DNA from: Candidatus Enterococcus ferrettii
GTDB lineage: Bacteria; Bacillota; Bacilli; Lactobacillales; Enterococcaceae
Reading direction: 5' to 3'
DNA length: 64,000 nucleotides
Assembly: GCF_017377655.1 (NCBI RefSeq)
Contig: NZ_JAFREL010000070.1
Location: forward strand, 124,001-188,000
Shown: one piece after another, positions 44,818-63,657 of the stretch
Numbering within the stretch: position 1 is the stretch's first letter
How the letters are laid out: each line of letters starts with the position of its first letter
Position numbers and translations under genes: made by a program
The notes under the pieces: generated by a model
Told to the model about the DNA's origin: nothing
What the model saw: only the letters and a program-made list of their open reading frames with translations
Database searches by the model: none

Positions 44818-46212
44818 ATGACTGTACCTGAACTGCAAGATGAGTATCAATTTGGCTTCCACGATGATGTAAAACCTGTCTTTACGACTGGGGAAGGCTT
44901 GTCTGAAGAAGTTATTCGCGAAATCTCCCGCGTTAAAGGGGAACCAGAATGGATGTTGGAGTTTCGTTTGAAATCTCTTGAAACATTCTATAAATTAAAT
45001 ATGCCTGATTATGGTCCGGATTTAACTGATTTGGACTTTAACAAGATTAATTATTATATTAAATCCAGTAATAAACCGGCTCGTGACTGGGAGGATGTTC
45101 CTGAAGAGATTAAAACAACCTTTGAGCGTTTAGGTATTCCTGAAGCAGAACGTGCATATTTAGCGGGAGCTTCTGCTCAATATGAGTCAGAAGTTGTCTA
45201 TCATAATATGAAGGATGAGTTTGAAAAATTAGGAATCGTTTTTACGGATACTGATTCTGCCTTGAAGGAGTATCCAGAACTATTTAAGGAATACTTTGGA
45301 ACCTTAGTGCCGCCATCTGATAATAAGTTGGCAGCTCTAAACTCTGCGGCTTGGTCAGGTGGAACCTTTATCTATGTACCAAAAGGTGTTCAAACGGATA
45401 TTCCAATTCAATCATACTTCCGGATTAATGCTGCTAACACCGGGCAATTTGAGCGTACGCTGATTATTGTCGATGAAGGTGCCAGTATTAACTACGTAGA
45501 GGGCTGTACGGCCCCTACCTACTCATCAGACAGCTTGCATGCTGCTGTAGTAGAAGTGTTTGTAAAAAAGGATGGTTATTGCCGCTATACAACAATTCAA
45601 AACTGGTCTAACAATGTTTATAGTTTGGAAACTAAACGAGGCCAAGCTCAAGAAAATGCTACAATGGAGTGGGTAGATGGTAATTTAGGTTCTAAGGTTA
45701 CAATGAAGTACCCAAGTGTCTATATGAATGGTAGAGGTGCTCGTGGTACAATGCTGTCGATCGCTGTGGCTGGTAAAAACATTGTTTTGGATAATGGCGC
45801 TCGCATGATTCATAATGCGCCAAACACGTCGAGTACAATTGTTTCTAAATCAATCGCTAAGGACGGTGGGGCAGTAGACTATCGCGGAACTGTTCGTTTT
45901 ACTCGTGATAGCGAAGGGTCATTCAGCCATATTGAGTGTGATACGATTATTATGGATGATATTTCTCGTTCAGATACGATACCTTATAACGAAATTATGA
46001 ATGGTAATGTTTCTCTTGAACACGAAGCAAAGGTTTCGAAGATTTCAGAAGAACAATTATATTATTTAATGAGTCGTGGTATTTCAGAGCAAGAAGCAAC
46101 AGAAATGATCGTTATGGGATTTGTTGAGCCCTTTACTAAAGAGTTACCGATGGAATATGCAGTAGAATTAAACCGGTTGATCCAATTTGAAATGGAAGGC
46201 AGTGTTGGCTAA
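44818..46212 (+). CDS. sufB: Fe-S cluster assembly protein SufB
   Basis: 464 residues. The beta-helix core includes the GCTAP segment ([19 protein letters not shown]), the region of the sulfur-accepting and cluster-binding residues. It is the main scaffold subunit of SufBC2D. Last gene of the operon, followed by a strong terminator. The mobile element begins within 100 bp after the stop. Confidence 0.96.
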
Positions 46213-46309: not shown

Positions 46310-47500
46310 TTAAAATAAATATTTCTCTTTTTCAATGAATTGTGCGAATTGATCTGCACTGCGTTCTTCACGTTCAGGATAGAAGTAGTTATAGACCTGA
46401 CGAGTCATTTTAGAATCTTTATGACCAACTCGGTACATAATATCCTCTAAGTTCATATCAGCCATTGCGCAAAGAGAGACATGTGTTTTTCTAAATTCAT
46501 GAAGTGTAATTCGTTTTAAGTTGTACTTAGTCGCTATGACATCATACCAGTCATTTGGCTGACCGGGGCGACAAAAAAGATTATCTTTATTAGGGAAGAC
46601 TAGCTGATGCTTATTCGTTGCTCTAATTCCCAAAACCTTAAACTCAAACTGCTGTCTAGTTCGCCATTCCTGTAACATAGCCATCGTTTCTAAATCAATT
46701 GAAATAGTCCTTTTACCGGCATTTGTTTTGGCGCTTTGACTGGCTACTTTAGTTTTTTTAGATTTTGGATCGTACTCAACTTCTGCCAATGTTTTACTGA
46801 TTGTTAATTTGTTGTTATCAAAATTAATATCGTTCCATTCTAAGGCAAGTATTTCAGATTTTCTTGCACCAGTGTAGGCTAAAATACGAAAATAGGTTTC
46901 GATTTTCATATTGCCATGTTTTTTACAAGACTCCAAGAAAATAGCTAATTCTTTTGGTGTATAAACAGTCATTGTTTCTGTAGCGACTAAATGTTCATCA
47001 ATTTCTTGACGTTTGATTGGTTCAGTTTTACGCATGGGATTTTCAAGAATCAATTCCTGTTGAACACCATATTGTAAAATTTGAGCAACAGCCCTGCGGA
47101 AATAATAAGCTTGCTTATAACCATCTCTTATCCAGCGACGATTGACTTGAGTACAAAATCGGACTGAAATGTCTTTAAGCATTTTATTTCCGAAGTATTC
47201 AAGTGCATGATCTTCAATCGCTCTTCTTGTTATCATGATAGTAGATGGTTTTACTTTTAAACGATATTGTTCAATAAATTCTTCATAAAGCTCTTTAAAC
47301 GTAATATTACCATTCATCTTTAACTTATTTTTATCAAAATCAAGTTGTAACTGTCGATAAGTTTGCTGGGCTTCTTTTTTTGTTTGGAAACCACTTCTAG
47401 TAGTGCGTACTTCTTCACCAAATTCCGTTTTTCCAAGGTAACATTGGAATTTCCAAAGCTTTTGATTATACTTAGTGTATTGTTTAAAAGATACTGACAT
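46310..47500 (-). CDS. int: Tn916-family tyrosine recombinase (integrase)
   Basis: 396 residues, close to the length of Tn916 Int (405). Layout: N-terminal arm-binding domain (about 1-70), SAM-like core-binding domain, and catalytic domain (about 195-396) with Arg in AYTGARKSEILAL, HEFRKTHVS, then VGHKDSKM with a Tyr nucleophile in QVYNYFYPE. It inserts and excises the element. GAAGGAAG is about 8 nt upstream of the ATG. Confidence 0.95.
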   Translation of the reverse strand: MSVSFKQYTKYNQKLWKFQCYLGKTEFGEEVRTTRSGFQTKKEAQQTYRQLQLDFDKNKLKMNGNITFKELYEEFIEQYRLKVKPSTIMITRRAIEDHALEYFGNKMLKDISVRFCTQVNRRWIRDGYKQAYYFRRAVAQILQYGVQQELILENPMRKTEPIKRQEIDEHLVATETMTVYTPKELAIFLESCKKHGNMKIETYFRILAYTGARKSEILALEWNDINFDNNKLTISKTLAEVEYDPKSKKTKVASQSAKTNAGKRTISIDLETMAMLQEWRTRQQFEFKVLGIRATNKHQLVFPNKDNLFCRPGQPNDWYDVIATKYNLKRITLHEFRKTHVSLCAMADMNLEDIMYRVGHKDSKMTRQVYNYFYPEREERSADQFAQFIEKEKYLF

Positions 47501-49627: not shown

Positions 49628-49656
49628 TTGACAACACATAGATTCTCATCTATATT
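49628..49656 (+). promoter_or_regulatory. First ars promoter
   Basis: TTGACA (49628-49633) and TATATT (49651-49656), spacing 17 nt, the same structure as the two other ars promoters. An ATAGAT...ATCTAT repeat at 49638-49653 lies in the spacer and -10. Confidence 0.8.
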
Positions 49657-49676
49657 ATACATAGATGTCCGTCTAT
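49638..49676. promoter_or_regulatory. Double ArsR operator at the first ars promoter
   Basis: ATAGAT-4 nt-ATCTAT (49638-49653) and ATAGA-6 nt-TCTAT (49661-49676) are inverted repeats resembling the operators at 51951 and 52726. ArsR would block the promoter until arsenite is bound. Confidence 0.7.
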
Positions 49677-49749: not shown

Positions 49750-49776
49750 TAAGGGAGACAATCTCCTTATTTTTTT
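49750..49776 (+). terminator. Hairpin with T run in the arsD1 leader
   Basis: AAGGGAGA and TCTCCTT pair with one bulge around CAA, followed by a T run. It lies 46 bp before the arsD1 start and could be an attenuator, since no gene lies between it and the promoter. Confidence 0.6.
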
Positions 49777-49782
49777 GAGCAT

Positions 49783-49804
49783 CACATAGATGTGCATCTA
49801 TGTG
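49783..49804. promoter_or_regulatory. Third ArsR-type operator, directly before arsD1
   Basis: CACATAGATG-TG-CATCTATGTG is a perfect 10-bp inverted repeat with a 2-nt spacer. It is the best inverted repeat of the set but lies about 130 bp downstream of the first promoter. Confidence 0.65.
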
Positions 49805-49821: not shown

Positions 49822-50133
49822 ATGAAATCATTAGTTTTATTTGAGTCAGAGATGTGTTGTGGTATCAAGATGACAGGAGCAGAAGTAAATAAAAATCTAT
49901 TATATTTGAGCCCAACATTACAGAAAATTCAACGAGAAACAAATTACGAAGTGGAGCGTCATAGCTTAACAATTGAACCAAATGTATTTTTGGAAAATGA
50001 GGAAGTCAAATCATTAATAGATAAAAATGGCATTAGTGTCTTACCGATAACCATTGTGGATGGAGAGGTAAAAAAGTTTGGTGCCTATCCCTCATTAAAA
50101 GAATTTGAAAATTTTACAGGTGTAAATGAATAA
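49822..50133 (+). CDS. arsD: ArsD-like arsenic metallochaperone, third cysteine missing
   Basis: 103 residues. ArsD carries As(III) or Sb(III) to the ArsA ATPase and is also a weak repressor of the operon. The vicinal cysteines are kept (ESEMCCGI, residues 12-13 of the family), but where ArsD2 has VCGPG (Cys18) this copy has KMTGA, so the usual three-Cys site is incomplete. GAGGAAGGG is 6-7 nt before the ATG. It overlaps the open frame that leads into arsA1. Confidence 0.85.
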   Translation: MKSLVLFESEMCCGIKMTGAEVNKNLLYLSPTLQKIQRETNYEVERHSLTIEPNVFLENEEVKSLIDKNGISVLPITIVDGEVKKFGAYPSLKEFENFTGVNE

Positions 50134-50152
50134 AAATTTAGGAGGAAATATC

Positions 50153-51892
50153 ATGGAAATGTATCAACCAGAGGCAATTCATTTAACGAAATATCTATTT
50201 TTCACAGGTAAAGGAGGCGTTGGGAAAACTTCTACAGCTAGTGCTACAGCAACTTATCTAGCTGACAAAGGGAAACAAGTCATGTTGGTTAGTACCGACC
50301 CAGCAAGCAATTTGCAGGATGTCTTTGAATTAGAACTCTCAAATAAAGGGACTAAAATTCCTAATGTAGAAGGTTTAGTTGTCGCCAACTTTGACCCTGT
50401 GGAGGCGGCTAATGACTATAAAGAAAGTATTGTAGGACCTTATCGTGGTAAATTGCCAGATTCAGTTTTGGAAAATATGGAAGAACAATTGTCAGGCTCT
50501 TGTACTGTAGAGATAGCCTCATTTAATGAATTTGCCAATTTTTTAACGGATAAAGAAGCCTCTACAAAATTTGATCATATTATTTTTGATACTGCCCCAA
50601 CAGGTCATACTCTGAGAATGCTTCAATTACCTTCTGCTTGGAATAATTATTTAGATGAGAATGAGACCGCAACTGCTCCTTTAGGACAATTATCAGGTGC
50701 TGTAGACAAAAAAGAAATGTATGATCTAGCTGTTAAAACCTTAATTGACGGTCAGAAAACGACGTTGATGTTGGTAACGAGACCGCAAAAAACGTCTTTA
50801 TTAGAAGCAGATAGAGCGTCAAAAGAATTGGAAGAAATGGGGATTAAAAATCAAGCATTAATTATTAATGGGGTACTGGAAGAAGCAACAGATAAAGTCT
50901 CTGAGGAATTTTATGCTATTCAACAGGAAGCATTAAAACAGATGCCAGCAAGTTTAGCTAAGTATCCAGAATATTTTGTACCATTACGTCCATATAATTT
51001 AACTGGAATTGAAAATATTAGAAAATTATTGAATGAACATCAAGAAGAACTATTGACGGGATCAATTAAACCAAAAGAATTTCCCCACTTACAAGCCATT
51101 GTGGATAATTTATATAAAACGGATAAAAAAGTTATTTTTACAATGGGTAAAGGTGGCGTAGGGAAGACGACGATAGCCGCAGCAATTGCAATGGCATTAG
51201 CGGATAAAGGGAAAAAAGTTCATTTAGCAACGACTGATCCAGCAGCACATCTTCAATTTGTTATTTCAGAAACTGACAAAATTAGCGTGAGTCATATTGA
51301 TGAAGAAAAAGAACTAGCAGATTATCAGTCTGAGATATTAACAAAAGCTCGTGAAACAATGTCAGAAGAAGATGTGGCATATGTTGAAGAAGACTTACGT
51401 TCCCCTTGCACACAAGAGATTGCTGTTTTTAGAAAGTTTGCGGAAATAGTTGAAGGAGCAGATAGTGATGTTGTTGTGATTGATACCGCACCAACAGGTC
51501 ATACACTATTGCTATTAGATTCAACACAAAGCTACCACAAAGAGATTGAACGTTCTTCTGGAGATATACCCGAGTCTGTTCAAAAGCTACTGCCTAAGTT
51601 ACAAAATGGGGATGAAACAGAAGTAGTAATGGTCACATTACCCGAAGCAACACCTGTTTATGAATCAATTCGATTAAAAGATGACTTGGAGAGAGCGGGA
51701 ATCGCTCGTACTTGGTGGGTAGTGAACAATAGCATGCTTTCTAGCGGAACAACGAACCCAATGCTTTTAGCAAGAGCACAAAATGAAGAAGTTTGGATTG
51801 ATAAGGTAGCAGAGCTGTCTAACAATCATTACGCAGTGATTGAATGGAAAGCTGAGGATATTTCAGGAGATGCTTTAAGAGATATTTTATAA
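50153..51892 (+). CDS. arsA: Arsenite-transporting ATPase ArsA, copy 1
   Basis: 579 residues, two ATPase halves joined by a linker. Walker A GKGGVGKTS near residue 20 and GKGGVGKTT in the second half (about 330); DTAPTGHT in both. As(III) ligands of E. coli ArsA: Cys113 is in SGSCTVEIA and Cys422 in SPCTQEIA, but Cys172 is lost (TAPLGQL instead of ASCLGQL in copy 2). It would energise the ACR3 pump. ATG 50153 with TAGGAGG 7 nt upstream. Confidence 0.9.
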   Translation: MEMYQPEAIHLTKYLFFTGKGGVGKTSTASATATYLADKGKQVMLVSTDPASNLQDVFELELSNKGTKIPNVEGLVVANFDPVEAANDYKESIVGPYRGKLPDSVLENMEEQLSGSCTVEIASFNEFANFLTDKEASTKFDHIIFDTAPTGHTLRMLQLPSAWNNYLDENETATAPLGQLSGAVDKKEMYDLAVKTLIDGQKTTLMLVTRPQKTSLLEADRASKELEEMGIKNQALIINGVLEEATDKVSEEFYAIQQEALKQMPASLAKYPEYFVPLRPYNLTGIENIRKLLNEHQEELLTGSIKPKEFPHLQAIVDNLYKTDKKVIFTMGKGGVGKTTIAAAIAMALADKGKKVHLATTDPAAHLQFVISETDKISVSHIDEEKELADYQSEILTKARETMSEEDVAYVEEDLRSPCTQEIAVFRKFAEIVEGADSDVVVIDTAPTGHTLLLLDSTQSYHKEIERSSGDIPESVQKLLPKLQNGDETEVVMVTLPEATPVYESIRLKDDLERAGIARTWWVVNNSMLSSGTTNPMLLARAQNEEVWIDKVAELSNNHYAVIEWKAEDISGDALRDIL

Positions 51893-51919
51893 TTTACGAG
51901 ATAACTCATATTTTACTCA

Positions 51920-51948
51920 TTGACAAAACATAGATAAAGTTCTATATT
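51920..51948 (+). promoter_or_regulatory. Second ars promoter
   Basis: TTGACA (51920-51925) and TATATT (51943-51948), spacing 17 nt, 35 nt before the arsR1 start codon. Confidence 0.85.
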
Positions 51949-51950
51949 AA

Positions 51951-51970
51951 ATATAGATGAACATCTATAT
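51951..51970. promoter_or_regulatory. ArsR operator at the arsR1 promoter
   Basis: ATATAGATG-AA-CATCTATAT is a perfect 9-bp inverted repeat with 2-nt spacer, directly downstream of the -10. Confidence 0.8.
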
Positions 51971-51982
51971 GGAGGTGAGAAT

Positions 51983-52276
51983 ATGGATTATTTAGGATTA
52001 TCAAAAATTATGAAGGCAATTGCAGAGCCTAATAGACTTCAAATATTAGATATGATTTCAACTGGTGAAAAGTGTGCATGTGATATTTTGGATAATTTTG
52101 ATTTTACTCAGCCGACACTATCACATCATATGAAGGTTTTAATTGAGGCGGGAGTAGTAACCGCACGTAAGGAAGGCAAATGGCAATATTATTCTCTGGT
52201 AACAGAGAACATTGAAGAATTTCAAGAATTAATACATCAGATATTGAATATAAAACAAAAAGAAGGAGTTATGTAA
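51983..52276 (+). CDS. arsR: ArsR-family arsenic-responsive repressor, copy 1
   Basis: 97 residues, winged helix. The metal site GEKCACDIL (Cys-x-Cys, the position of the arsenite-binding cysteines in ArsR) lies at about residues 31-35, and the recognition helix is TQPTLSHHMKVL. It would repress the ars promoters and leave DNA on binding As(III) or Sb(III). It starts 10 nt after GGAGGTG and precedes arsD2 by 1 nt. Confidence 0.93.
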   Translation: MDYLGLSKIMKAIAEPNRLQILDMISTGEKCACDILDNFDFTQPTLSHHMKVLIEAGVVTARKEGKWQYYSLVTENIEEFQELIHQILNIKQKEGVM

Positions 52277-52277
52277 A

Positions 52278-52649
52278 ATGAGTAAAGTATCGTTGTATGA
52301 ACCAGCAATGTGTTGTGACACAGGAGTTTGTGGTCCCGGAGTAGATACAGAATTGCTTCGAGTTTCCTCTATTATTCAAACATTGGAAAAAGCCGATGGT
52401 GTAGAAGTAGAGCGTTTTAATTTAACAGGTAATCCTGCGGCATTCATAGAAAATGAAAAAATTGGGGAGTTGTTACAGTCTAAAGGAGCCGACATACTAC
52501 CAGTTGTTTTATTAGATGGTGAAATTGTGAAAATGGCTGGTTATCCGTCAAATGAGGAGTTTAGTGTCTATACTGGTGTTAATTTCTCAGAGGATAAGAA
52601 AGAAGAACAATCAAATAGTTGCTGCTCTCCATCATCTGGATGTTGCTAA
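52278..52649 (+). CDS. arsD: ArsD arsenic metallochaperone, copy 2
   Basis: 123 residues. The full three-Cys site is present: AMCCDTGVCGPG (Cys12, Cys13, Cys18). The C-terminus ends NSCCSPSSGCC, two more cysteine pairs, typical of ArsD. It is expected to load As(III) on an ArsA copy. It follows arsR1 directly and ends at a terminator, before the next promoter. Confidence 0.93.
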   Translation: MSKVSLYEPAMCCDTGVCGPGVDTELLRVSSIIQTLEKADGVEVERFNLTGNPAAFIENEKIGELLQSKGADILPVVLLDGEIVKMAGYPSNEEFSVYTGVNFSEDKKEEQSNSCCSPSSGCC

Positions 52650-52660
52650 ACGAAGAAACT

Positions 52661-52695
52661 AAAGCTTATGAGAAGAAATTCTCATAGGCTTTTTT
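52661..52695 (+). terminator. Terminator after arsD2
   Basis: AAGC-TTATGAGAA and TTCTCATA-GGCTT form a stem of about 13 bp around a GAAA loop, followed by six T. Confidence 0.8.
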
Positions 52696-52715
52696 ATTAA
52701 GTGAGACAGAATCTA

Positions 52716-52744
52716 TTGACAATAGATAGATGAACATCTATATT
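52716..52744 (+). promoter_or_regulatory. Third ars promoter
   Basis: TTGACA (52716-52721) and TATATT (52739-52744), spacing 17 nt, 38 nt before arsR2. Confidence 0.85.
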
Positions 52745-52764
52745 ATATATAGAAGAACTTCTAT
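52726..52764. promoter_or_regulatory. Double ArsR operator at the arsR2 promoter
   Basis: ATAGATG-AA-CATCTAT (52726-52741, within the spacer and -10) and ATAGAAG-AA-CTTCTAT (52749-52764). Confidence 0.8.
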
Positions 52765-52781
52765 GTATGGAGGGATGAAAG

Positions 52782-53147
52782 ATGGATTATGAATTAACAG
52801 CAAAAGTTTTTAAAGCATTAGGAGACCCAAAAAGAGTTCAAATTGTGGATATGCTCTCTTGTGGTGAGCGTTGTGCATGTGATTTATTAGAGCATTTTGA
52901 ATTTACGCAACCAACGCTTTCCCATCACATGAAAGTGTTAATGAATGCAGGGATTGTTCAAGCCAGAAAATCAGGGACATGGCACAACTATTCATTGAAT
53001 GCGGAGAATATGAAAGTATTATCTGGTGTTATTCAAACAATAATTCAAAACACAGATGACTGTATTTGTCATACGATTGATAATGCTGCATGTTCTTGTG
53101 AGGGTAAAGGGAGAGTAACAGCTACAAAGAAAGTAACAACTGCTTAG
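52782..53147 (+). CDS. arsR: ArsR-family repressor, copy 2, with cysteine-rich tail
   Basis: 121 residues. Winged helix with GERCACDLL metal site and the same TQPTLSHHMKVL recognition helix as copy 1. After residue 85 a tail adds DDCICHTIDNAACSCEGKG, five cysteines not found in copy 1. The tail may be a second metal site or a trap for arsenite. It heads arsR2-arsA2. Confidence 0.92.
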   Translation: MDYELTAKVFKALGDPKRVQIVDMLSCGERCACDLLEHFEFTQPTLSHHMKVLMNAGIVQARKSGTWHNYSLNAENMKVLSGVIQTIIQNTDDCICHTIDNAACSCEGKGRVTATKKVTTA

Positions 53148-53182
53148 AATGATGATGTTAAATTTAAAGGAGGAAACCAAAC

Positions 53183-54925
53183 ATGAAATTGTACCAACCA
53201 GATCAGCTACCATTAACAAAGTATCTATTTTTTACAGGAAAGGGAGGTGTTGGTAAAACAACGACTGCTTGTGGCACTGCTACTTATTTAGCAGATAGTG
53301 GGAAAAAAGTTATGTTAGTCAGTACCGATCCAGCAAGTAATTTACAAGATGTTTTTCAAACAGAATTAACAAATAAAGGGAAAGAAATTCCAGAAGTTCC
53401 GGGATTAACTGTAGCAAATTTTGATCCAGTAACAGCAGCTGATGACTATAAAGAAAGTGTTGTAGGACCATTTAGAGGGAAACTACCTGATTCTGCTTTA
53501 GCGAATATGGAGGAACAATTATCTGGTTCTTGTACAGTAGAGATTGCTGCCTTCAATGAATTTTCTGGTTTTTTAACTGATCCAGAAGCAGAGAAAAAGT
53601 ATGACTATATTATTTTTGATACCGCACCAACAGGTCACACGTTAAGGATGTTACAGTTACCGTCTGCATGGAGTAATTTTATGGATGAAAATACAACAGG
53701 AGCTTCATGCTTAGGTCAATTATCTGGTTTAGGTGATAAAAAGGAAATTTATGAGCATGCTGTAGCCACATTAGCTGATGGAGCAAAAACAACTTTAATG
53801 CTTGTAACTAGACCACAAAAGGCACCACTTTTAGAAGCAGATCGAGCTTCTAAAGAATTACAAGAGATAGGCATTGAAAATCAAGTTTTATTAGTGAATG
53901 GCGTCTTAGAGGAAGCAACAGATAAAGTATCTCAATTGATTTATGATGGACAACAAGAAGCGTTGGCACAAATGCCAGATAGTTTGAAAGCTTTTCCTGA
54001 GTACAGTATTCCTTTACGTTCTTACAATGTGACTGGTGTTGAAAATCTACGCCAATTGTTGAAATCCAATCAAGGTGAATTTTTAACTGAAATAGTCACA
54101 CCAAGAGCATTTCCTAGATTGAAAGACATCGTGAATGAGTTGCATCAATCTGGTAAAAAAGTGATTTTTACAATGGGTAAAGGTGGCGTTGGGAAAACGA
54201 CTATTGCTGCGGCAATTGCCACTGGTTTAGCAGATAAAGGCAAGAAAGTTCATTTGGCTACAACCGATCCAGCTGCTCATTTACAATTTGTGATTTCTGA
54301 ATCCGATCAAATCAAGGTGAGTCATATCGATGAGGACAAGGAATTAGCAGATTATACAGAAGAAGTATTAAGCAAGGCTCGTGAAACGATGTCACCAGAT
54401 GATGTTGCTTATGTAGAAGAAGATTTACGTTCGCCTTGTACACAAGAAATCGCTGTATTCAGAGCTTTTGCAGAGATTGTGGATGATGCCGATTGTGATG
54501 TGGTAGTTATTGATACCGCACCAACAGGACATACATTACTATTACTTGATTCTACCCAAAGCTACCATAAAGAAGTAGAGCGGACATCTGGTGAAGTACC
54601 AGAATCAGTGAAACGTCTCTTACCTCGTTTGCAAGATGGAAAAGAAACCGAAGTGGTCATGGTCACTTTACCTGAAACAACACCTGTTTATGAATCTATG
54701 CGACTACAGGAAGACTTGGATCGAGCAGGCATTGCTCATACATGGTGGGTCGTGAATAACAGTATGTTAACAAGTGGTACAACAAATCCAATGTTATTAG
54801 CCCGAGCACAAAATGAAAATACATGGATTGATAAAGTAGCAGAATTATCTAATAATCATTATGGGGTTGTAGAATGGCATGCAGAAGAAATCTCTGGAGA
54901 AGCACTACACAATATATTGAATTAG
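53183..54925 (+). CDS. arsA: Arsenite-transporting ATPase ArsA, copy 2
   Basis: 580 residues, aligned end to end with copy 1. Two Walker A sites (GKGGVGKTT), DTAPTGHT in both halves, and all three metalloid cysteines: SGSCTVEIA (Cys113), GASCLGQL (Cys172) and SPCTQEIA (Cys422). It should be a normal ArsA. GGAGGAAAC is upstream. A perfect inverted repeat follows before the pump genes. Confidence 0.93.
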   Translation: MKLYQPDQLPLTKYLFFTGKGGVGKTTTACGTATYLADSGKKVMLVSTDPASNLQDVFQTELTNKGKEIPEVPGLTVANFDPVTAADDYKESVVGPFRGKLPDSALANMEEQLSGSCTVEIAAFNEFSGFLTDPEAEKKYDYIIFDTAPTGHTLRMLQLPSAWSNFMDENTTGASCLGQLSGLGDKKEIYEHAVATLADGAKTTLMLVTRPQKAPLLEADRASKELQEIGIENQVLLVNGVLEEATDKVSQLIYDGQQEALAQMPDSLKAFPEYSIPLRSYNVTGVENLRQLLKSNQGEFLTEIVTPRAFPRLKDIVNELHQSGKKVIFTMGKGGVGKTTIAAAIATGLADKGKKVHLATTDPAAHLQFVISESDQIKVSHIDEDKELADYTEEVLSKARETMSPDDVAYVEEDLRSPCTQEIAVFRAFAEIVDDADCDVVVIDTAPTGHTLLLLDSTQSYHKEVERTSGEVPESVKRLLPRLQDGKETEVVMVTLPETTPVYESMRLQEDLDRAGIAHTWWVVNNSMLTSGTTNPMLLARAQNENTWIDKVAELSNNHYGVVEWHAEEISGEALHNILN

Positions 54926-55004: not shown

Positions 55005-56084
55005 ATGATGATGGAAAAAGAAGAACAAAAAGGATTGGGAATATTTGAAAAATATTTAACGCTTTGGGTGGCTTTGTGTATGGTTACGGGTGTTTTAATT
55101 GGGAAATATTTGCCAGCTGTTCCAGCAACTTTAGGGAAATTCGAGTATTATCAAGTATCTATTCCAACAGCAATCTTAATTTGGTTGATGATCTATCCGA
55201 TGATGTTGAAAATAGATTTTACTAGTATTGTCAATGCAGCTAAAAAACCTAAAGGTCTGATTGTAACCTGTACAGTGAATTGGTTAATTAAGCCATTTAC
55301 GATGTATGCCATTTCAGCATTTTTCTTTTTCGTTGTATTTAAAGGGATTATCCCAAATGATTTAGCCAAAGAATATGTTGCAGGAGCAGTATTGTTAGGT
55401 GCGGCACCCTGTACTGCAATGGTCTTTGTTTGGAGTTACTTAACCAAAGGAGATCCAGCTTATACATTAGTTCAAGTTGCGATTAATGATTTAATTATTT
55501 TAGTGTTGTATGCGCCAATCGTTGCTATTTTATTAGGTGTTGGAAATGTAGCTGTTCCAATTAATACATTGATTTTGTCGACTGTTTTATTCGTAGTGAT
55601 TCCACTTCTTTTAGGTGTTGTCACTCGAACATTCATCATAAAAAATAAAGGACTTCATTATTTTGAAACAGTATTTCTAAAAAAATTTGATAAGGTTACG
55701 ATTATTGGGCTTCTCTTAACGCTAGTGATTATTTTTTCTTTTCAAGGTGAAAGAATCTTGAATAATCCACTGCACATTCTTTTGATTGCAATTCCGCTAA
55801 CCATTCAAACACTATTTATTTTTGCTATTGCGTATACATGGGCTCGCTTTTGGAAGTTGCCTCATTCGATTGCTGCTCCGGCAGGCATGGTTGGAGCTAG
55901 TAATTTCTTTGAATTATCTGTAGCAGTAGCCATCTCACTATTTGGTTTACAGTCAGGGGCAACATTAGCAACAGTAGTGGGCGTATTGGTTGAAGTACCA
56001 GTCATGTTGCTATTAGTTAAAGTTGCGAATAGTACAGTTGGATGGTTTCAAAAAAATGAGTTACCTCAATCGTTAAGAAGCTAG
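55005..56084 (+). CDS. arsB: ACR3-family arsenite efflux pump, type 1 of two
   Basis: 359 residues, ten membrane segments. The conserved Cys of ACR3 pumps is in LGAAPCTAMVFVWS, and IYPMMLKIDF and APAGMVGASNFFEL are family segments. It resembles Bacillus YqcL-type ArsB/Acr3. It moves As(III) out, alone or with ArsA. Several ATG codons in a row (55005, 55008, 55011) are possible starts after GGAGGAAG. Confidence 0.92.
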   Translation: MMMEKEEQKGLGIFEKYLTLWVALCMVTGVLIGKYLPAVPATLGKFEYYQVSIPTAILIWLMIYPMMLKIDFTSIVNAAKKPKGLIVTCTVNWLIKPFTMYAISAFFFFVVFKGIIPNDLAKEYVAGAVLLGAAPCTAMVFVWSYLTKGDPAYTLVQVAINDLIILVLYAPIVAILLGVGNVAVPINTLILSTVLFVVIPLLLGVVTRTFIIKNKGLHYFETVFLKKFDKVTIIGLLLTLVIIFSFQGERILNNPLHILLIAIPLTIQTLFIFAIAYTWARFWKLPHSIAAPAGMVGASNFFELSVAVAISLFGLQSGATLATVVGVLVEVPVMLLLVKVANSTVGWFQKNELPQSLRS

Positions 56085-56122
56085 TTTAAGAAGACTAAAT
56101 TTATTACTTGGAGATGTTGATT

Positions 56123-57169
56123 GTGGCAGGTGTAACAAAAAAATTATCATTATTGGATCGTTATTTAACCCTCTGGATTTTTCTTGCAATGGGCTTTGGT
56201 ATTGGATTAGGTTATTTTGTACCAGAGGTTGTGACAGGAATAAATAAACTGGAAGTTGGAACAACTTCTATACCTATTGCGATAGGCTTGATATTAATGA
56301 TGTATCCACCGTTAGCTAAGGTGAAATATGAAGAGATGTGGCGTGTCTTTAAAGATTGGAAGGTTTTATTATTATCACTTTTCCAAAACTGGATTGTCGG
56401 TCCCATTTTAATGTTTATTTTAGCTGTTGTCTTTTTACATGATTATCCTGAATATATGGTGGGGTTAATTATGATTGGTCTGGCTCGTTGTATTGCAATG
56501 GTAATTGTGTGGAGTAACTTAGCTCAAGCGGACAATGAGTATACGGCAGGATTAGTGGCGTTCAATTCCATTTTTCAAATTATCTTTTATTCAGTGTTTG
56601 CCTATATTTTTGTGACAGTTATTCCGGGATGGTTAGGCTTAGAAACGCATGATGTTTCAATTGGAATGGGTGAGATTGCAACAAGTGTTTTCATTTATTT
56701 AGGTATTCCTTTCATTGCAGGCTTTTTATCTCGTTGGATTCTAATAAAGAAAAAAGGAAAGAAATGGTATGAAGAAAAATTCATTCCTAAAATTAGTCCA
56801 ATTACATTGGTTGCCTTATTATTTACAATTGTTGTGATGTTCTCCGTTAAAGGAGAAAAAGTCATTGAACTTCCAATGGATGTAGTAAGGATTGCCATTC
56901 CATTACTCATTTATTTTGTCCTTATGTTCTTTGTTTCATTCTTTATTTCTAAACGTATGGGAACCAGTTATCCAATTGCAGCTTCATTATCGTTTACCGC
57001 AGCGAGCAATAATTTTGAATTAGCAATTGCGGTAGCAGTTGGCGTATTTGGTATTAATTCAGGGGAAGCCTTTGCAGCAGTAATTGGTCCACTAGTGGAA
57101 GTTCCGGTTTTGATTGGTTTAGTAAATGTAGCATTGAAATTTAAGCAAAAATATTTTAAGCAAACTTAA
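56123..57169 (+). CDS. arsB: ACR3-family arsenite efflux pump, type 2
   Basis: 348 residues with ten membrane segments. The pump cysteine is in [14 protein letters not shown], the form seen in the other ACR3 branch, and [15 protein letters not shown] replaces the copy 1 segment. The two pumps are clearly different in sequence, so they are not a recent duplication. GTG 56123 is preferred, 9 nt after GGAG (56110-56113); TTG 56108 and ATG 56114 are alternatives. Confidence 0.9.
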
Positions 57170-59144: not shown

Positions 59145-60080
59145 ATGAGCTATGCACTAGATTTAAAAGGCTTAAAAAAAGTATATGCGACCGGTGTTGA
59201 GGCGCTGCGTGGTATTGATTTAACTGTAGAAGAAGGAGATTTTTATGCACTGCTAGGTCCAAACGGTGCTGGAAAATCAACAACAATTGGAATTATTACC
59301 TCACTTGTTAATAAGACTGCTGGTCAAGTAAAGGTTTTTGATTATGATATTGATAATGATTTAGAGCGAGCAAAGCAACAGATTGGTCTTGTGCCGCAGG
59401 AATTTAATTTTAATCCGTTTGAAACGGTTCAACAAATTGTAGTAAATCAAGCAGGATATTATGGTGTCTCAAGAAAAGAGGCACTGAAACGTAGTGAAAA
59501 GTATTTGAAGCAGTCCAATTTATGGGAGAAAAGAAACGTTCGTGCCCGTATGTTATCTGGAGGGATGAAACGAAGACTTATGATAGCTCGAGCATTAATG
59601 CACGAGCCACGTCTGCTAATTCTTGATGAACCAACTGCTGGAGTGGACATTGAGCTTAGAAGAGAAATGTGGGCATTTTTAAAAGAGTTAAATGAAAGTG
59701 GCACAACAATCATTCTTACAACTCATTATTTAGAAGAAGCAGAGATGCTTTGTCGTAACATTGGAATTATTCAATCAGGTGAGCTAATTGAGAATACAAG
59801 TATGAAAGCACTTCTATCAAAACTACAATATGAGACTTTCATTTTTGATTTAGATAGCTACGACAAAAAGCCTGTGATAAAAGGTTATAAGCACTTTTTT
59901 GAAGATGATCTAACACTTGCTATAGAAGTTGAACGAAATCAGGGAGTTAATAATATTTTTGAGCAGCTCAATCAGCAAAATATCAAGGTTCTTTCTATGC
60001 GCAATAAATCAAATAGATTGGAAGAGTTGTTCTTAAAAATTACCGAAGACAAACATCAAAAGGAGGAGAAAAATGTTTAG
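59145..60080 (+). CDS. ABC-2 type exporter, ATP-binding subunit
   Basis: 311 residues. Walker A GPNGAGKST, Q loop, signature LSGGMKRR, Walker B LILDEPTAGVD. It is in the DrrA/YadG group that exports drugs, lipids or polysaccharides. Ribosome site AAGGAGG is about 14 nt upstream. Overlaps the permease by 8 nt. Its position between ars and cad genes suggests cargo, though a metal link is not seen in sequence. Confidence 0.88.
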   Translation: MSYALDLKGLKKVYATGVEALRGIDLTVEEGDFYALLGPNGAGKSTTIGIITSLVNKTAGQVKVFDYDIDNDLERAKQQIGLVPQEFNFNPFETVQQIVVNQAGYYGVSRKEALKRSEKYLKQSNLWEKRNVRARMLSGGMKRRLMIARALMHEPRLLILDEPTAGVDIELRREMWAFLKELNESGTTIILTTHYLEEAEMLCRNIGIIQSGELIENTSMKALLSKLQYETFIFDLDSYDKKPVIKGYKHFFEDDLTLAIEVERNQGVNNIFEQLNQQNIKVLSMRNKSNRLEELFLKITEDKHQKEEKNV

Positions 60081-60843
60081 TATCTACTTTACAGCACTTA
60101 AAAGCTTAGCAGTTAAGGAAACCAACCGTTACCTACGGATATGGGTACAAACTTTAGTGCCTCCTGTTATTACGACCTCATTATATTTTGTTATTTTTGG
60201 AAAAATGATTGGTGGTCGTATTGGTGATATGGGCGGCTTCTCCTATATGGAATTTATTGTACCAGGTTTAATTATGATGTCTGCAATCACAAGTTCTTAC
60301 GCAAATGTTTCTTCATCTTTCTTTTCTCAAAAATTCCAAAAGAATATTGAAGAGCTATTAGTTGCACCTGTACCCACACATGTTATTATTTGGGGATTTG
60401 TTATTGGTGGACTGGGTAGGAGTATCTTAGTTGGGACATTGGTTACAGTCATTTCTCTATTTTTTGTTCCACTTCATGTTTATTCATGGTTTATTGTGGT
60501 GATTACATTATTGATGACTGCAATTTTATTTTCATTAGCAGGCTTAATTAATGGTGTTTTTGCACAATCTTATGATGATGTTTCAATTGTACCAACATTT
60601 GTTTTACAGCCATTAACTTATTTAGGTGGTGTATTTTACGCCATTTCAATGCTACCACCTTTTTGGCAAGGAGTTTCAAAAGTCAATCCTATCGTTTATA
60701 TGATTTCTGGGTTCAGATACGGTTTTCTTGGGACAACTGATGTGCCACTCGTCATTTCTATAACGATTCTAATTCTTTTTATTATCATCCTTTATTCTGT
60801 TTGTTGGTATCTTGTTGATAAAGGGAAAGGGCTGAGAAGCTAG
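60073..60843 (+). CDS. ABC-2 type exporter, permease subunit
   Basis: 256 residues with six hydrophobic segments. The C-terminal part has YLGGVFYAISMLPPFWQ and NPIVYMISGFRYGFLG, which are typical of YadH/DrrB permeases. It forms a two-gene transporter with the preceding ATPase. A terminator follows. Confidence 0.88.
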   Translation: MFSIYFTALKSLAVKETNRYLRIWVQTLVPPVITTSLYFVIFGKMIGGRIGDMGGFSYMEFIVPGLIMMSAITSSYANVSSSFFSQKFQKNIEELLVAPVPTHVIIWGFVIGGLGRSILVGTLVTVISLFFVPLHVYSWFIVVITLLMTAILFSLAGLINGVFAQSYDDVSIVPTFVLQPLTYLGGVFYAISMLPPFWQGVSKVNPIVYMISGFRYGFLGTTDVPLVISITILILFIIILYSVCWYLVDKGKGLRS

Positions 60844-61148: not shown

Positions 61149-61164
61149 TTGAGTGATTGCTCAA
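61149..61164. promoter_or_regulatory. Probable CadC operator
   Basis: TTGAG-TGATTG-CTCAA is an inverted repeat 5 nt after the -10 and 18 nt before the cadC start, as expected for CadC binding. Confidence 0.75.
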
Positions 61165-61181
61165 TTGAAAGGGTGAGAAAT

Positions 61182-61538
61182 ATGAATAAACAAGAATTGA
61201 TCTGTGATTGCGATGTTATACATAAAGAAGTTGTAGAGAAAGTGAAAGAAGTGATGCCTGAAAAACAAGCAATAACTAATTTAACTAGTTTATATAAGGC
61301 ATTTGCAGATAAAACTAGATTGGAAATACTGTATGCATTACACGAGAGTGAAATGTGTGTTTGTGATTTGGCTGTGTTGCTGAATATGACGAAATCGGCA
61401 ATTTCTCATCAATTAAAAACTTTAAGGCTCGCTAATCTGGTAAAAAACAGACGTGAGGGTAAGATTGTGTATTATTCACTTACTGACAAACATGTGTATG
61501 AAATTTTCGAACAAAGTTTCAAGCATGTAGCAGAATGA
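61182..61538 (+). CDS. cadC: CadC cadmium/zinc/lead-responsive repressor
   Basis: 118 residues, ArsR/SmtB family. Metal-sensing cysteines are in ELICDCDV (about residues 7-10) and SEMCVCDLA (about 58-60), the alpha3N arrangement of CadC. The recognition helix is TKSAISHQLKTL. It represses cadC-cadA until Cd, Pb or Bi binds. ATG 61182 after GGGTGAG is used; an upstream GTG lies in the operator. cadA starts 16 nt later. Confidence 0.93.
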   Translation: MNKQELICDCDVIHKEVVEKVKEVMPEKQAITNLTSLYKAFADKTRLEILYALHESEMCVCDLAVLLNMTKSAISHQLKTLRLANLVKNRREGKIVYYSLTDKHVYEIFEQSFKHVAE

Positions 61539-61554: not shown

Positions 61555-63657
61555 ATGAAGAAAGAGTATATTTTAGAGGGGTTAACTTGTGCAAACTGCG
61601 CAGGGAAAATTGAGAATGACGTTAAGAAAATAAGCGGTATAGAAAATGTGACACTTAACTTAATGAATACGACGTTAGCATTTGATAAGAAAGATGACAA
61701 CGGTCTTGATGAAGAAATCGAAAAAATCGTGCATACGTACGAACCAGAAGTTGGTGTTTTTCCTAAACAGGAATATAAAAAAGAACCAACAAAAAATTTG
61801 AGTCTTAAAGATAATAAGATTTTTCTTCGACTAGTAGTTGGTGCAATTATACTTATATTTGCAGTTATAGCCAACATGCAAGACGGTATAAATGATTGGT
61901 TGAAGTTAGCGTTATTCTTAATCAGTTATGCAATTCTTGGTGGAGATGTATTGTTAAAAGCAATTCGTAATATTTTTAAGGGCCAAGTATTTGATGAAAA
62001 CTTCTTAATGAGTATTGCAACGATTGGAGCCTTTATCATTGGAGAAACCGCAGAAGCAGTTGCTGTTATGCTTTTTTATCAAATTGGTGAATTGTTTCAA
62101 GATATTGCCGTTAAGCGTTCTAAAAAATCAATTACAGATTTAATGGATATTCGACCAGATTATGCTAACTTGAAAGTTGGAAACGACATCAAGAAAGTAA
62201 AACCTGAAACAATAAAGATTGGTGATATCATTATTGTTAAGGCTGGCGAAAAAGTATCTCTTGATGGAATTGTCGTTGCTGGCGAATCCCTGTTAGATAC
62301 AAAAGCATTAACAGGTGAATCGGTCCCACGAAAAACAAAAACTGGAGATAACGTATTGTCTGGTTGTATCAATCAGAGTGGTGTCTTAACGATTGAAGTT
62401 ACAAAAACATTTGGTGAATCAACGGTGGCAAAGATTATTGATCTTGTTGAAAATGCTAGTAGTAAAAAAGCCCCCACTGAAAACTTTATCACAAAATTTT
62501 CAAGATACTATACTCCAGTAGTGGTAATTGTTGCAACCCTATTAGCAGTCATTCCTCCCCTATTCTTTGGTGGTGAGTGGTCTGATTGGGTAAATAGAGG
62601 GCTAATCTTTCTTGTAATCTCTTGTCCATGTGCATTGGTTGTTTCAATCCCGCTAGGTTTCTTTGGTGGAATTGGTGGTGCTTCTAAACATGGTATTCTA
62701 GTAAAAGGCAGTAATTTTCTTGAAGCCTTAAACAATGTTGATACAATTGTATTTGATAAAACAGGAACACTAACAGAGGGAGTATTTGAAGTCACTTCTA
62801 TTAATACAAGCAATGGTTTTACAGAAGAGCAATTAATAGAGTATGGAGCAAAAGCAGAAACACTGTCTAATCACCCAATTGCTATGTCAATTAAGAAAGC
62901 TTATGGTAAAGAGATTGAACACAGTGAACTTGATTCTTATCAAGAAATTGCAGGACATGGAATTAGTGTATTGATTAAAGAAAAACCTGTTCTTGCAGGA
63001 AATGAAAAATTAATGAAACAGCATAATATTGAGTATATGTCGAACAGCGAAACAGGAACGGTTGTTTATATTGCTATTGATAATGTATTTGCTGGTTCAA
63101 TTGTGATTTCAGATAAAATTAAAAAGGATAGTTTTGAAGCCATTCAATCACTTAAGAGTAAAGGTGTTCAAAAGACAGTCATGCTAACAGGTGATAATAA
63201 AGTGATTGCTCAAAATATTGCTAAAGAATTGTCATTAGATGAAGTTTATTCAGAATTACTTCCAACAGACAAAGTGGATATTTTAGAAAGACTTGAAAAT
63301 GAGGAAGTTGACAAAGGAAAACTAGCCTTTGTCGGTGATGGAATCAATGATGCTCCCGTATTAGCAAGAGCAGATATCGGAATTGCTATGGGCGGTTTAG
63401 GGTCAGATGCTGCTATTGAGGCAGCAGATATTGTCTTAATGACCGATGAACCTTCTAAAATAGCAAAAGCCATTGATATTTCAAGTTTTACAAAGAAAAT
63501 AGTATGGCAAAATATTATTTTTGCATTAGGTGTTAAAGCCATCTTTTTAACTCTTGGTGCATTCGGAATTGCAACAATGTGGGAAGCTGTATTTGCTGAT
63601 GTTGGTGTATCTGTATTGGCGATTTTAAATGCTACACGTGTCATAAGATATAAATAA
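61555..63657 (+). CDS. cadA: Cadmium/zinc-exporting P1B-type ATPase CadA
   Basis: 700 residues. N-terminal metal domain with GLTCANCAGKIE, the CPC motif (SCPCALVVSIP) in the membrane, [11 protein letters not shown] and GDGINDAPVLARAD. It exports Cd2+, Zn2+ and Pb2+. GGAGG stands 8 nt before the ATG. A terminator follows. Confidence 0.95.
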   Translation: MKKEYILEGLTCANCAGKIENDVKKISGIENVTLNLMNTTLAFDKKDDNGLDEEIEKIVHTYEPEVGVFPKQEYKKEPTKNLSLKDNKIFLRLVVGAIILIFAVIANMQDGINDWLKLALFLISYAILGGDVLLKAIRNIFKGQVFDENFLMSIATIGAFIIGETAEAVAVMLFYQIGELFQDIAVKRSKKSITDLMDIRPDYANLKVGNDIKKVKPETIKIGDIIIVKAGEKVSLDGIVVAGESLLDTKALTGESVPRKTKTGDNVLSGCINQSGVLTIEVTKTFGESTVAKIIDLVENASSKKAPTENFITKFSRYYTPVVVIVATLLAVIPPLFFGGEWSDWVNRGLIFLVISCPCALVVSIPLGFFGGIGGASKHGILVKGSNFLEALNNVDTIVFDKTGTLTEGVFEVTSINTSNGFTEEQLIEYGAKAETLSNHPIAMSIKKAYGKEIEHSELDSYQEIAGHGISVLIKEKPVLAGNEKLMKQHNIEYMSNSETGTVVYIAIDNVFAGSIVISDKIKKDSFEAIQSLKSKGVQKTVMLTGDNKVIAQNIAKELSLDEVYSELLPTDKVDILERLENEEVDKGKLAFVGDGINDAPVLARADIGIAMGGLGSDAAIEAADIVLMTDEPSKIAKAIDISSFTKKIVWQNIIFALGVKAIFLTLGAFGIATMWEAVFADVGVSVLAILNATRVIRYK

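What the first reader, a model, noticed from the sequence alone, without database searches (positions are those of the whole stretch)
49822..54925. Two ArsD-ArsA pairs that differ in metal-binding residues
Both ArsD and ArsA occur twice. In the second pair all known As(III) cysteines are present. In the first pair ArsD lacks the third Cys (KMTGA at the VCGPG position) and ArsA lacks Cys172 (TAPLGQL instead of ASCLGQL). The losses affect both partners of the same pair, so pair 1 may be an altered chaperone-pump couple: a different metalloid, regulation only, or a dying copy.
Basis: partly seen in the sequence, partly recalled or inferred. Interest (0 to 1): 0.75.

Follow-up and report, generated by a model that had tools for sequence, protein, structure and literature searches.

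The report
Arsenic chaperone-ATPase pair lacking matched cysteines
This mobile arsenic-resistance cassette carries two chaperone-ATPase pairs, and one pair has lost one arsenic-binding cysteine in each partner; a second, distant bacterial lineage shows the same paired loss, so the change looks kept rather than decayed, though its chemical purpose is untested.

Summary
ArsD1 (49822-50133) keeps Cys12-Cys13 but has Thr at 18. ArsA1 (50153-51892) keeps the Cys113 and Cys422 equivalents but has Pro at 172. ArsD2 and ArsA2 keep all three. The cassette is the known arsD1A1R1D2R2A2B1B2 set of Listeria genomic island LGI2: published arsA1 and cadA4 primers match exactly and give the published spans. 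The gene order is not new.

The residue pattern is the interesting part. Among 121 adjacent ArsD-ArsA pairs examined, 114 keep both residues, 7 lack both and none is mixed; an eighth both-lost pair was found later. Four of the seven are copies of this one element; the rest are a Paenibacillus-type lineage. For ArsA a single origin of the loss is rejected (AU p 6e-45); for ArsD it is not (p 0.22). ArsA1 dN/dS is 0.04-0.07, like ArsA2, so it is not dying. Tetragenococcus-type loci keep ArsA1 without ArsD1.

Best reading: a maintained two-thiol subtype of the ArsD-to-ArsA relay. A shift to two-coordinate organoarsenicals is chemically plausible, but gene co-occurrence does not support it. New variant of a known kind.

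The parts
49628..49676 (+). promoter-like TTGACA-17-TATATT with two tandem ATAGA-N6-TCTAT operator-like sites (49638-49653, 49661-49676), upstream of arsD1
   Evidence: 8 exact matches of the palindrome in the window, all in the cassette, 0.06 expected. The promoter scan as a whole is at chance (21 found, 19.9 expected), but its three best hits (11 of 12) are the ones over these operators. ArsR binding is inferred
49752..49768 (+). terminator-like hairpin in the arsD1 leader
   Evidence: consensus scan only (5 found in the region, mean 2.8, sd 1.5 in shuffles)
49786..49801 (+). third operator-like copy just upstream of arsD1
49822..50133 (+). ArsD1: C12 and C13 kept, C18 replaced by Thr (49873-49875), no C-terminal Cys
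   Evidence: PF06953 87.3 bits (cut-off 27), NF033727 96.4 (90)
50153..51892 (+). ArsA1: C113 and C422 equivalents kept (50501-50503, 51407-51409), C172 replaced by Pro (50678-50680)
   Evidence: TIGR04291 836 bits (cut-off 650)
51920..51968 (+). promoter-like site with tandem operator-like copies (51930-51945, 51953-51968) upstream of arsR1
51983..52276 (+). ArsR1 (97 aa, KCACD motif)
52278..52649 (+). ArsD2, canonical (C12, C13, C18 plus four C-terminal Cys)
52716..52764 (+). promoter-like site with tandem operator-like copies (52726-52741, 52749-52764) upstream of arsR2
52782..53147 (+). ArsR2 (121 aa, Cys-bearing C-terminal extension)
53183..54925 (+). ArsA2, canonical (C113, C172, C422 equivalents)
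   Evidence: TIGR04291 857.4 bits
54952..54967 (+). eighth operator-like copy, between arsA2 and the first acr3 gene
55005..56084 (+). ACR3 arsenite permease (first)
   Evidence: TIGR00832 383 bits (cut-off 282.8)
56108..57169 (+). ACR3 arsenite permease (second)
   Evidence: TIGR00832 464.1 bits
57190..58863 (+). CoA-disulfide-reductase-like flavoprotein with rhodanese domain
   Evidence: below the NCBIfam cut-offs
61555..63657 (+). P-type metal ATPase (named by reading the ORF) that holds the published LGI2 cadA4 primer sites; ArsR/CadC-like regulator at 61149-61538
46310..47500 (-). tyrosine-recombinase-like integrase of the carrying element, next to the sufB 3' end (sufB named by reading)
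   Evidence: NCBIfam match below cut-off (41.2 of 220 bits)

Best explanation
ArsD1-ArsA1 is a maintained, derived subtype of the ArsD-ArsA metallochaperone-ATPase couple in which both metalloid sites were reduced from three thiols to two. SHOWN: both residues are absent throughout the relatives seen; the loss is paired in every adjacent pair examined; ArsA lost C172 at least twice; ArsA1 is under purifying selection; ArsD C12-C13 and ArsA C113-C422, and the H148, S420 and H453 equivalents, are kept in the variants read from loci. INFERRED: ArsD1 binds a trivalent arsenical on the vicinal C12/C13 pair and passes it to the C113/C422 pair of ArsA1; ATP-dependent ArsA1 then feeds one of the two ACR3 permeases, or another pump, alongside the canonical ArsD2-ArsA2 couple. 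A two-thiol relay should bind As(OH)3 more weakly and exchange faster, and should still hold species with only two free coordination sites. Whether selection acts on low-affinity As(III)/Sb(III) export at high dose or on two-coordinate organoarsenicals is open; I put these at about 45% and 22%, the rest being another ligand or none.
For: Pair table: 114 CCC/CCC, 7 both lost, 0 mixed among 121 adjacent pairs; an eighth pair in G1290 holds that genome's only ArsA over the family cut-off. C172 loss needs two changes on the ArsA tree and one clade is rejected (79 rows, quick tree, trait columns left out: delta lnL 153.7, p 6.4e-45). The same two residues are lost in both lineages while the other four Cys stay (11 of 11 C172-less ArsA from loci; ArsD CC kept in all C18-less ArsD from loci). 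dN/dS: ArsA1 0.039, 0.052, 0.068 against ArsA2 0.058, 0.059, 0.076; between the two G950 copies variant ArsD 0.103 and variant ArsA 0.097 against canonical ArsA 0.131. The window's ArsD1 and six full-length relatives (64-97% identical) keep C12-C13. The pair has its own promoter-like site and three operator-like copies.
Against: Few events: two origins for ArsA, possibly one for ArsD (AU p 0.219; with the motif columns kept a one-clade tree fitted better than the free one, p 0.978). The window-type copies are one mobile element (98.7-99.97% identical) and count once; two of the three other pairs are in one genome. ArsD1 looks partly dispensable: absent beside ArsA1 in two Tetragenococcus-type loci, short clusters P0005 and P0008 without CC, faster divergence than its partner (64% against 92% identity). 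One database ArsA1 cluster, P0020, has Tyr at 422. In the plasmid collection ArsD1 is in 1 record while 8 Enterococcus and Listeria records carry the ArsD2-type cassette at about 40% identity to ArsD1; pLI100 lacks D1A1. Organoarsenical partner genes are not enriched. No test of C18-less ArsD or C172-less ArsA was found in the searches made. That C113/C422 is the core ArsA site and C172 the lesser ligand is recalled, not read here.
Confidence: 0.55

Rival explanations
1. ArsA1 alone is what selection keeps. It is a second ATPase served by ArsD2, and ArsD1 is a relaxed passenger; the joint loss reflects an ArsD that stopped mattering beside a duplicated ArsA.
For: Loci L038 and L042 carry ArsA1 (PP at the site) with ArsR1-ArsD2 and no ArsD1 or detectable remnant. 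ArsD1 diverges far faster than ArsA1. CC-less short ArsD1 clusters exist.
Against: The six full-length ArsD1 relatives all keep C12-C13. The Paenibacillus-type variant ArsD is itself constrained (dN/dS 0.103) and adjacent to its ArsA in all four loci seen.
Confidence: 0.2
2. Ordinary divergence without new function: duplicate pairs tolerate loss of one ligand in each partner and still move inorganic As(III)/Sb(III) much as before.
For: C113 and C422 are kept in 11 of 11 C172-less ArsA from loci, with one exception in the database (P0020). Variant pairs sit beside a canonical pair in LGI2 and in G950 and G959. For the sensor ArsR, two Cys are said to suffice for arsenite (PMC2440759 passage), though three make the strongest site (PMC4287715 passage).
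Against: C18 and C172 are kept in 114 of 114 other adjacent pairs. In G1290 the variant pair is not a duplicate: it has the genome's only ArsA over the cut-off.
Confidence: 0.15
3. Pair 1 is a dying copy.
For: ArsA1 is broken or missing in some relatives of the cassette (L037 fragments; plasmid matches that start inside its 3' end; pLI100). ArsD1 has CC-less short clusters.
Against: ArsA1 dN/dS 0.04-0.07 with synonymous divergence near saturation in the wider comparisons; full-length ORFs named Listeria, Enterococcus and Tetragenococcus.
Confidence: 0.05
4. Regulation or decoy only: ArsD1 acts as the weak repressor once ascribed to ArsD, and ArsA1 is a scaffold.
For: ArsD was first described as a regulator (PMC12607644 passages; PMC6356457 section). 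Two ArsD-like proteins without the Cys triad stand without any ArsA hit in their loci (L090, L159), so ArsD-like proteins can be kept for other reasons.
Against: ArsA1 keeps both GKGGVGKT P-loops and both DTAPTGH motifs, and is strongly constrained.
Confidence: 0.05

Closest known systems
Listeria genomic island 2 (LGI2) arsenic cassette arsD1A1R1D2R2A2B1B2 with cadA4
   Same: Same gene order; published arsA1 and cadA4 primers match with 0 mismatches and give the published 1466 and 1135 bp spans; the ArsA1 cluster named Listeria monocytogenes (P0027) is 92.9% identical and has TAPLGQL.
   Different: The review section read says LGI2 inserts in at least eight places, mostly within reading frames, and that its donors are unidentified. 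I saw no remark on the missing cysteines.
Solved ArsD and ArsA (3ktb, 3mwh; 1f48), recalled as Bacteroides ArsD and E. coli R773 ArsD and ArsA
   Same: Same families by sequence; C12-C13 and C113-C422 kept.
   Different: The aligned 3ktb and 3mwh sequences have C18 and 1f48 has C172; pair 1 has Thr and Pro.
Engineered AfArsR C102S (organoarsenical-selective sensor)
   Same: A vicinal Cys pair plus a third Cys (C95, C96, C102), resembling ArsD C12, C13, C18; [quoted passage not shown]
   Different: Another family, engineered, a sensor; spacing differs by one residue. An analogy only.
Paenibacillus-type ArsD-ArsA variant pairs (L229, L230, L231, L269)
   Same: Same paired loss: ArsD C18 to Thr; ArsA C172 to Ser (L229, L230, L269) or Gln (L231).
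   Different: Separate ArsA clade. Neighbours differ by locus: MarR-like regulators with CC motifs and an ArsO-like flavoprotein (L229-L231), an ArsR-like regulator (L269), a HesB-like protein (L229, L230, L269); I saw no permease in the immediate group.

Membership tests
ArsD family | profile match over curated cut-off | tested here: met
   PF06953 87.3 bits (27), NF033727 96.4 bits (90):
ArsD family | vicinal Cys12-Cys13 | tested here: met
ArsD as a three-thiol As(III) metallochaperone | third ligand Cys18 | tested here: not met
   Thr18; otherwise Cys in 177 of 189 ArsD ORFs. Role of C12, C13 and C18 in transfer: PMC12607644 passages
ArsD as a three-thiol As(III) metallochaperone | As(III) binding and ArsA activation | not testable with these tools
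   needs protein
ArsA arsenite-translocating ATPase | profile match, two P-loops, DTAPTGH motifs | tested here: met
   TIGR04291 836 bits (650)
ArsA arsenite-translocating ATPase | Cys113 and Cys422 | tested here: met
ArsA arsenite-translocating ATPase | Cys172 | tested here: not met
   Pro; Cys in 125 of 136 full-length ArsA
LGI2 arsenic-cadmium island | arsD1A1R1D2R2A2B1B2 order with cadA4 downstream | tested here: met
   definition in PMC6356457 section 5
LGI2 arsenic-cadmium island | whole 35-kb island | not tested
   the window ends inside the element; Listeria LGI2 DNA was not in the collections searched
Organoarsenical-handling system | co-occurrence with ArsP, ArsM or ArsO above that of comparison genomes | tested here: not met
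   ArsP over cut-off in 5 of 9 genomes with C172-less ArsA and 23 of 50 comparison genomes; ArsM 1 of 9 and 3 of 50; ArsO 0 of 59. Weak test: genome-wide, small sample

The most novel reading that the evidence does not exclude
The three-thiol As(III) relay was turned into a two-thiol relay by losing the matching ligand in chaperone and ATPase, at least twice on the ATPase side, making an ATP-driven chaperone route for trivalent organoarsenicals (methylarsenite, phenyl or roxarsone-type As(III)), which offer only two coordination sites; the mobile LGI2 cassette would then cover both inorganic and organic arsenic.
Probability: 0.22. Interest if true: 0.78.

Novelty: new variant of a known kind. 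Interest (0 to 1): 0.58.

Why it matters
C18 of ArsD and C172 of ArsA are kept in nearly every pair examined here, yet a mobile cassette seen in Listeria, Enterococcus, Vagococcus and Atopostipes carries a conserved pair without either. Two natural pairs in one cassette give a clean comparison of what the third thiol does in metalloid hand-over. Resistance-gene prediction labels both pairs as arsenite functions, although one may differ. If the ligand differs, predictions of arsenic resistance from gene presence would need changing.

Tried and rejected
ArsD1 structure prediction gave pLDDT 48.8 (7 sequences) and was not used. Viral contig scans with both ArsD variant alignments found no relatives. 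Genome contigs gave two ArsD1 loci, Atopostipes suicloacalis and Vagococcus salmoninarum, copies of the same element. Pairing each ArsA with its own ACR3 was rejected: within the fetched stretches L038 and L042 have two ArsA and one ACR3, while L067, L069 and L071 have one ArsA and two ACR3. Organoarsenical gene context was tested and not supported; the ArsO-like flavoprotein scores as high in comparison genomes G967 and G949.

Two ArsD tree runs carried labelling errors of mine, one wrong row each (L138, AU p 0.003; L048, AU p 0.037), and are discarded although they favoured two origins. Searches (p 0.978; p 0.219, motif columns out) replace them. The ArsA AU test did not finish and was completed.

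Rows dropped. 47 ArsA hits of 500 aa or less (half-size or broken) were left out of the C172 counts; 7 show the motif, all with Cys, 40 do not show it. L160 and L161 were left out of the pair count as duplicates. From, nine of the ten places at 65-69 bits and the weaker ones were not fetched, 7 of 48 places (all 46 bits or less) were not fetched, 8 of 75 were not fetched (G936, G845, G987, G1003, G951, one of G1039, two of G811). The three searches drew 395, 398 and 398 genomes and overlap. Outside these only solved structures and plasmid hits were looked at, and the cysteines of the plasmid ArsD were not scored.

Names. R773 residue numbers are recalled and placed by the alignment.

Print. 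Search listings 8, 24, 29, 45, 70 and 96 showed no title or abstract on C18-less ArsD with C172-less ArsA. Passages or a section were read in nine papers, none whole. Four key papers sought by id were not held, so earlier notice in unread papers is possible.
Full report
OBSERVATION. The window carries, on the + strand, arsD1 (49822-50133), arsA1 (50153-51892), arsR1, arsD2, arsR2, arsA2, two acr3 genes and a CoA-disulfide-reductase-like gene. ArsD1 reads MCCGIKMTGAE where ArsD2 reads MCCDTGVCGPG; ArsA1 reads TAPLGQL where ArsA2 reads ASCLGQL; the C113 and C422 equivalents are kept in both.

WHAT THE CASSETTE IS. The order matches the arsenic set of Listeria genomic island LGI2, described as arsR1D2R2A2B1B2 with arsD1 and arsA1 upstream and cadA4 downstream (PMC6356457, section 5 read). 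Published LGI2 primers (PMC7698968, passages) match exactly at 50386-50404 and 51832-51851 (1466 bp, as published) for arsA1 and at 61731-61750 and 62845-62865 (1135 bp, as published) for cadA4. DNA identity with G124 and with Vagococcus salmoninarum (L036, L161) starts at base 46192, in the last 21 bases of sufB, and is 99.96-99.97% over the 12.9-13.9 kb held; the Atopostipes suicloacalis copy (L160) is 98.6-98.7% identical with an internal deletion. So one integrase-bearing element has moved between genera, and these copies count once as evidence.

IS THE LOSS UNUSUAL? I collected 162 loci (the window, 60 from the order search, 39 from the phylum search, 60 from the class search, 2 named contigs) from searches over 395, 398 and 398 genomes. 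They hold 189 ArsD ORFs: 177 CCC, 9 CCT, and 3 without the motif (L159 with no Cys at all, L090 with a Cys- and His-rich tail only, and a 54-aa fragment in L088). They hold 136 ArsA ORFs over 500 aa: 125 CCC, 8 CPC, 2 CSC, 1 CQC. Among 121 cases with such an ArsA just downstream of ArsD, 114 are CCC/CCC, 7 lack both C18 and C172, and none is mixed (duplicates L160 and L161 left out). Of the 7, four are copies of the window's element and three are Paenibacillus-type. An eighth pair came from a search of 197 genomes of that family: G1290, ArsD CCSAGVT with ArsA TTSGG. Among the best 120 of 7996 ArsA hits, 31 (P0012-P0041 and P0044) have Pro at the site and the other 89 have Cys; one of the 31, P0020, also lacks C422. 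Of 11 ArsD1 hits the 6 full-length ones have CC and no C18; the 5 shorter ones lack the CC region.

SECOND LINEAGE. The non-LGI2 losses are in two loci of G950 (L229, L230), in G959 (L231) and in G1290 (L269). In G950 and G959 a canonical pair lies nearby; in G1290 the variant ArsA is the only one over the family cut-off. Neighbours include MarR-like regulators with CC motifs, an ArsO-like flavoprotein (282-285 bits, cut-off 425), HesB-like proteins and, in G950, a methyltransferase that resembles but does not reach the ArsM cut-off (93.5 of 263 bits).

INDEPENDENCE. On a 79-row ArsA tree (thinned from 135, quick method, trait columns removed) the loss needs two changes, and the best tree holding all C172-less ArsA together is worse by 153.7 log units (AU p 6.4e-45). 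ArsA1 groups with ArsA2 of its own cassette type, so it probably arose by duplication in this lineage. For ArsD, 102 usable columns, the best careful tree keeps two groups but one clade is not rejected (p 0.219); with motif columns kept, a one-clade tree fits better. So C172 was lost twice; C18 may have been lost twice, or once in an old C18-less ArsD beside which ArsA later lost C172 twice. Both readings favour coupling, but on few events.

SELECTION. Pairwise Nei-Gojobori dN/dS for ArsA1 is 0.039 and 0.052 (window against L042 and L038) and 0.068 (between those two); for ArsA2 0.058, 0.059 and 0.076. Synonymous divergence is near saturation in the wider comparisons. Between the two G950 copies the variant ArsD is 0.103 and variant ArsA 0.097, against 0.131 for canonical ArsA; canonical ArsD gives 0.61 but on almost no differences (pS 0.012). 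A dying ArsA1 is very unlikely. ArsD1 is less secure: 64% identical to P0007 while ArsA1 is 92% identical to P0037, a hit with the same longest-contig length; short clusters lack CC; L038 and L042 have ArsA1 with no ArsD1 or remnant. No divergent ArsD1 DNA was at hand, so ArsD1 dN/dS within its clade was not measured.

REGULATION. The palindrome ATAGA-N6-TCTAT occurs 8 times in 64 kb, all in this cassette, against 0.06 expected. Tandem copies overlap TTGACA-17-TATATT before arsD1, arsR1 and arsR2 (the promoter scan as a whole finds no more than shuffles do, 21 against 19.9). Pair 1 thus looks like its own arsenic-induced unit; it also has a terminator-like hairpin in its leader followed by a third operator-like copy. 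That ArsR binds these is inferred.

MECHANISM. ArsD C12, C13 and C18 act in transfer to ArsA (PMC12607644 passages). A vicinal pair with a third Cys is also the AfArsR site; [quoted passage not shown] E. coli ArsR C37S likewise responds more weakly to As(III) while keeping its response to phenylarsine oxide, though those authors warn that ligand number alone does not explain selectivity (PMC7309064 passages). By analogy the matched loss in ArsD and ArsA makes a two-thiol relay: weaker for As(OH)3 and suited to two-coordinate species. The genomic test of the organoarsenical version failed: ArsP over cut-off in 5 of 9 genomes with C172-less ArsA and 23 of 50 comparison genomes (one of the five, G950, has it in two pieces), ArsM in 1 of 9 and 3 of 50, ArsO in 0 of 59. 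I therefore hold the two-thiol subtype as likely and its substrate as open.

PUBLIC NAMES. The resistance-gene prediction distributed with PLSDB (AMRFinderPlus) calls ArsD1 'arsD2: ArsD-related protein' on E. faecalis plasmid NZ_MH830363, so curators already set it apart from ArsD, even if I saw no mention of the residues. The numbering is crossed with respect to Listeria usage.

VERDICT. Observation confirmed; operon known; residue pattern real, fixed in its clade, recurrent on the ATPase side, and under constraint there; function untested.

Noticed in passing
window 46192-46212 and 46310-47500: Identity with the Vagococcus and G124 copies starts in the last 21 bases of sufB, next to the integrase, pointing to a sufB 3'-end attachment site for an LGI2-like element; the review section read says LGI2 donors are unidentified.
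   Followed up: partly
window 49752-49801: Terminator-like hairpin and a third operator-like copy lie between the arsD1 promoter-like site and the gene, a possible attenuator.
   Followed up: no
L160 and L286 (NZ_MH830363): Internal deletions (window 52672|57034 and 52278|57814) remove arsR2, arsA2 and acr3 genes, in L286 also arsD2, but keep arsD1A1R1.
   Followed up: partly
L090 4695-5315; nine similar unfetched places: ArsD-like proteins in 164-207 aa open frames, 65-69 bits, all in genus g37; the one fetched lacks the Cys triad, ends in a Cys- and His-rich tail, and has no ArsA hit in its locus.
   Followed up: partly
L159 3466-3798: An ArsD-like protein of 110 aa without any Cys and with no ArsA hit in its locus.
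   Followed up: no
L042 3820-5076: A transposase-like ORF (named by reading) lies between arsA1 and arsR1 in this Tetragenococcus-type locus.
   Followed up: no
L229 10800-11234 and 15288-15728; L231 13596-14060: MarR-like regulators with paired cysteines lie beside the variant ArsD-ArsA pair; possibly arsenic sensors.
   Followed up: no
P0005, P0008: Short ArsD1 clusters (92 and 80 aa) whose N-terminus lacks the CC motif, so ArsD1 is truncated in some strains.
   Followed up: partly
G000 assembly: 5.4 Mb and 4.7% contamination, while six sampled genus mates are 2.5-3.7 Mb; the assembly may be mixed.
   Followed up: no
window 59145-60843: ABC transporter pair between the ars and cad genes, also on E. 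faecalis plasmid NZ_MH830363.
   Followed up: no
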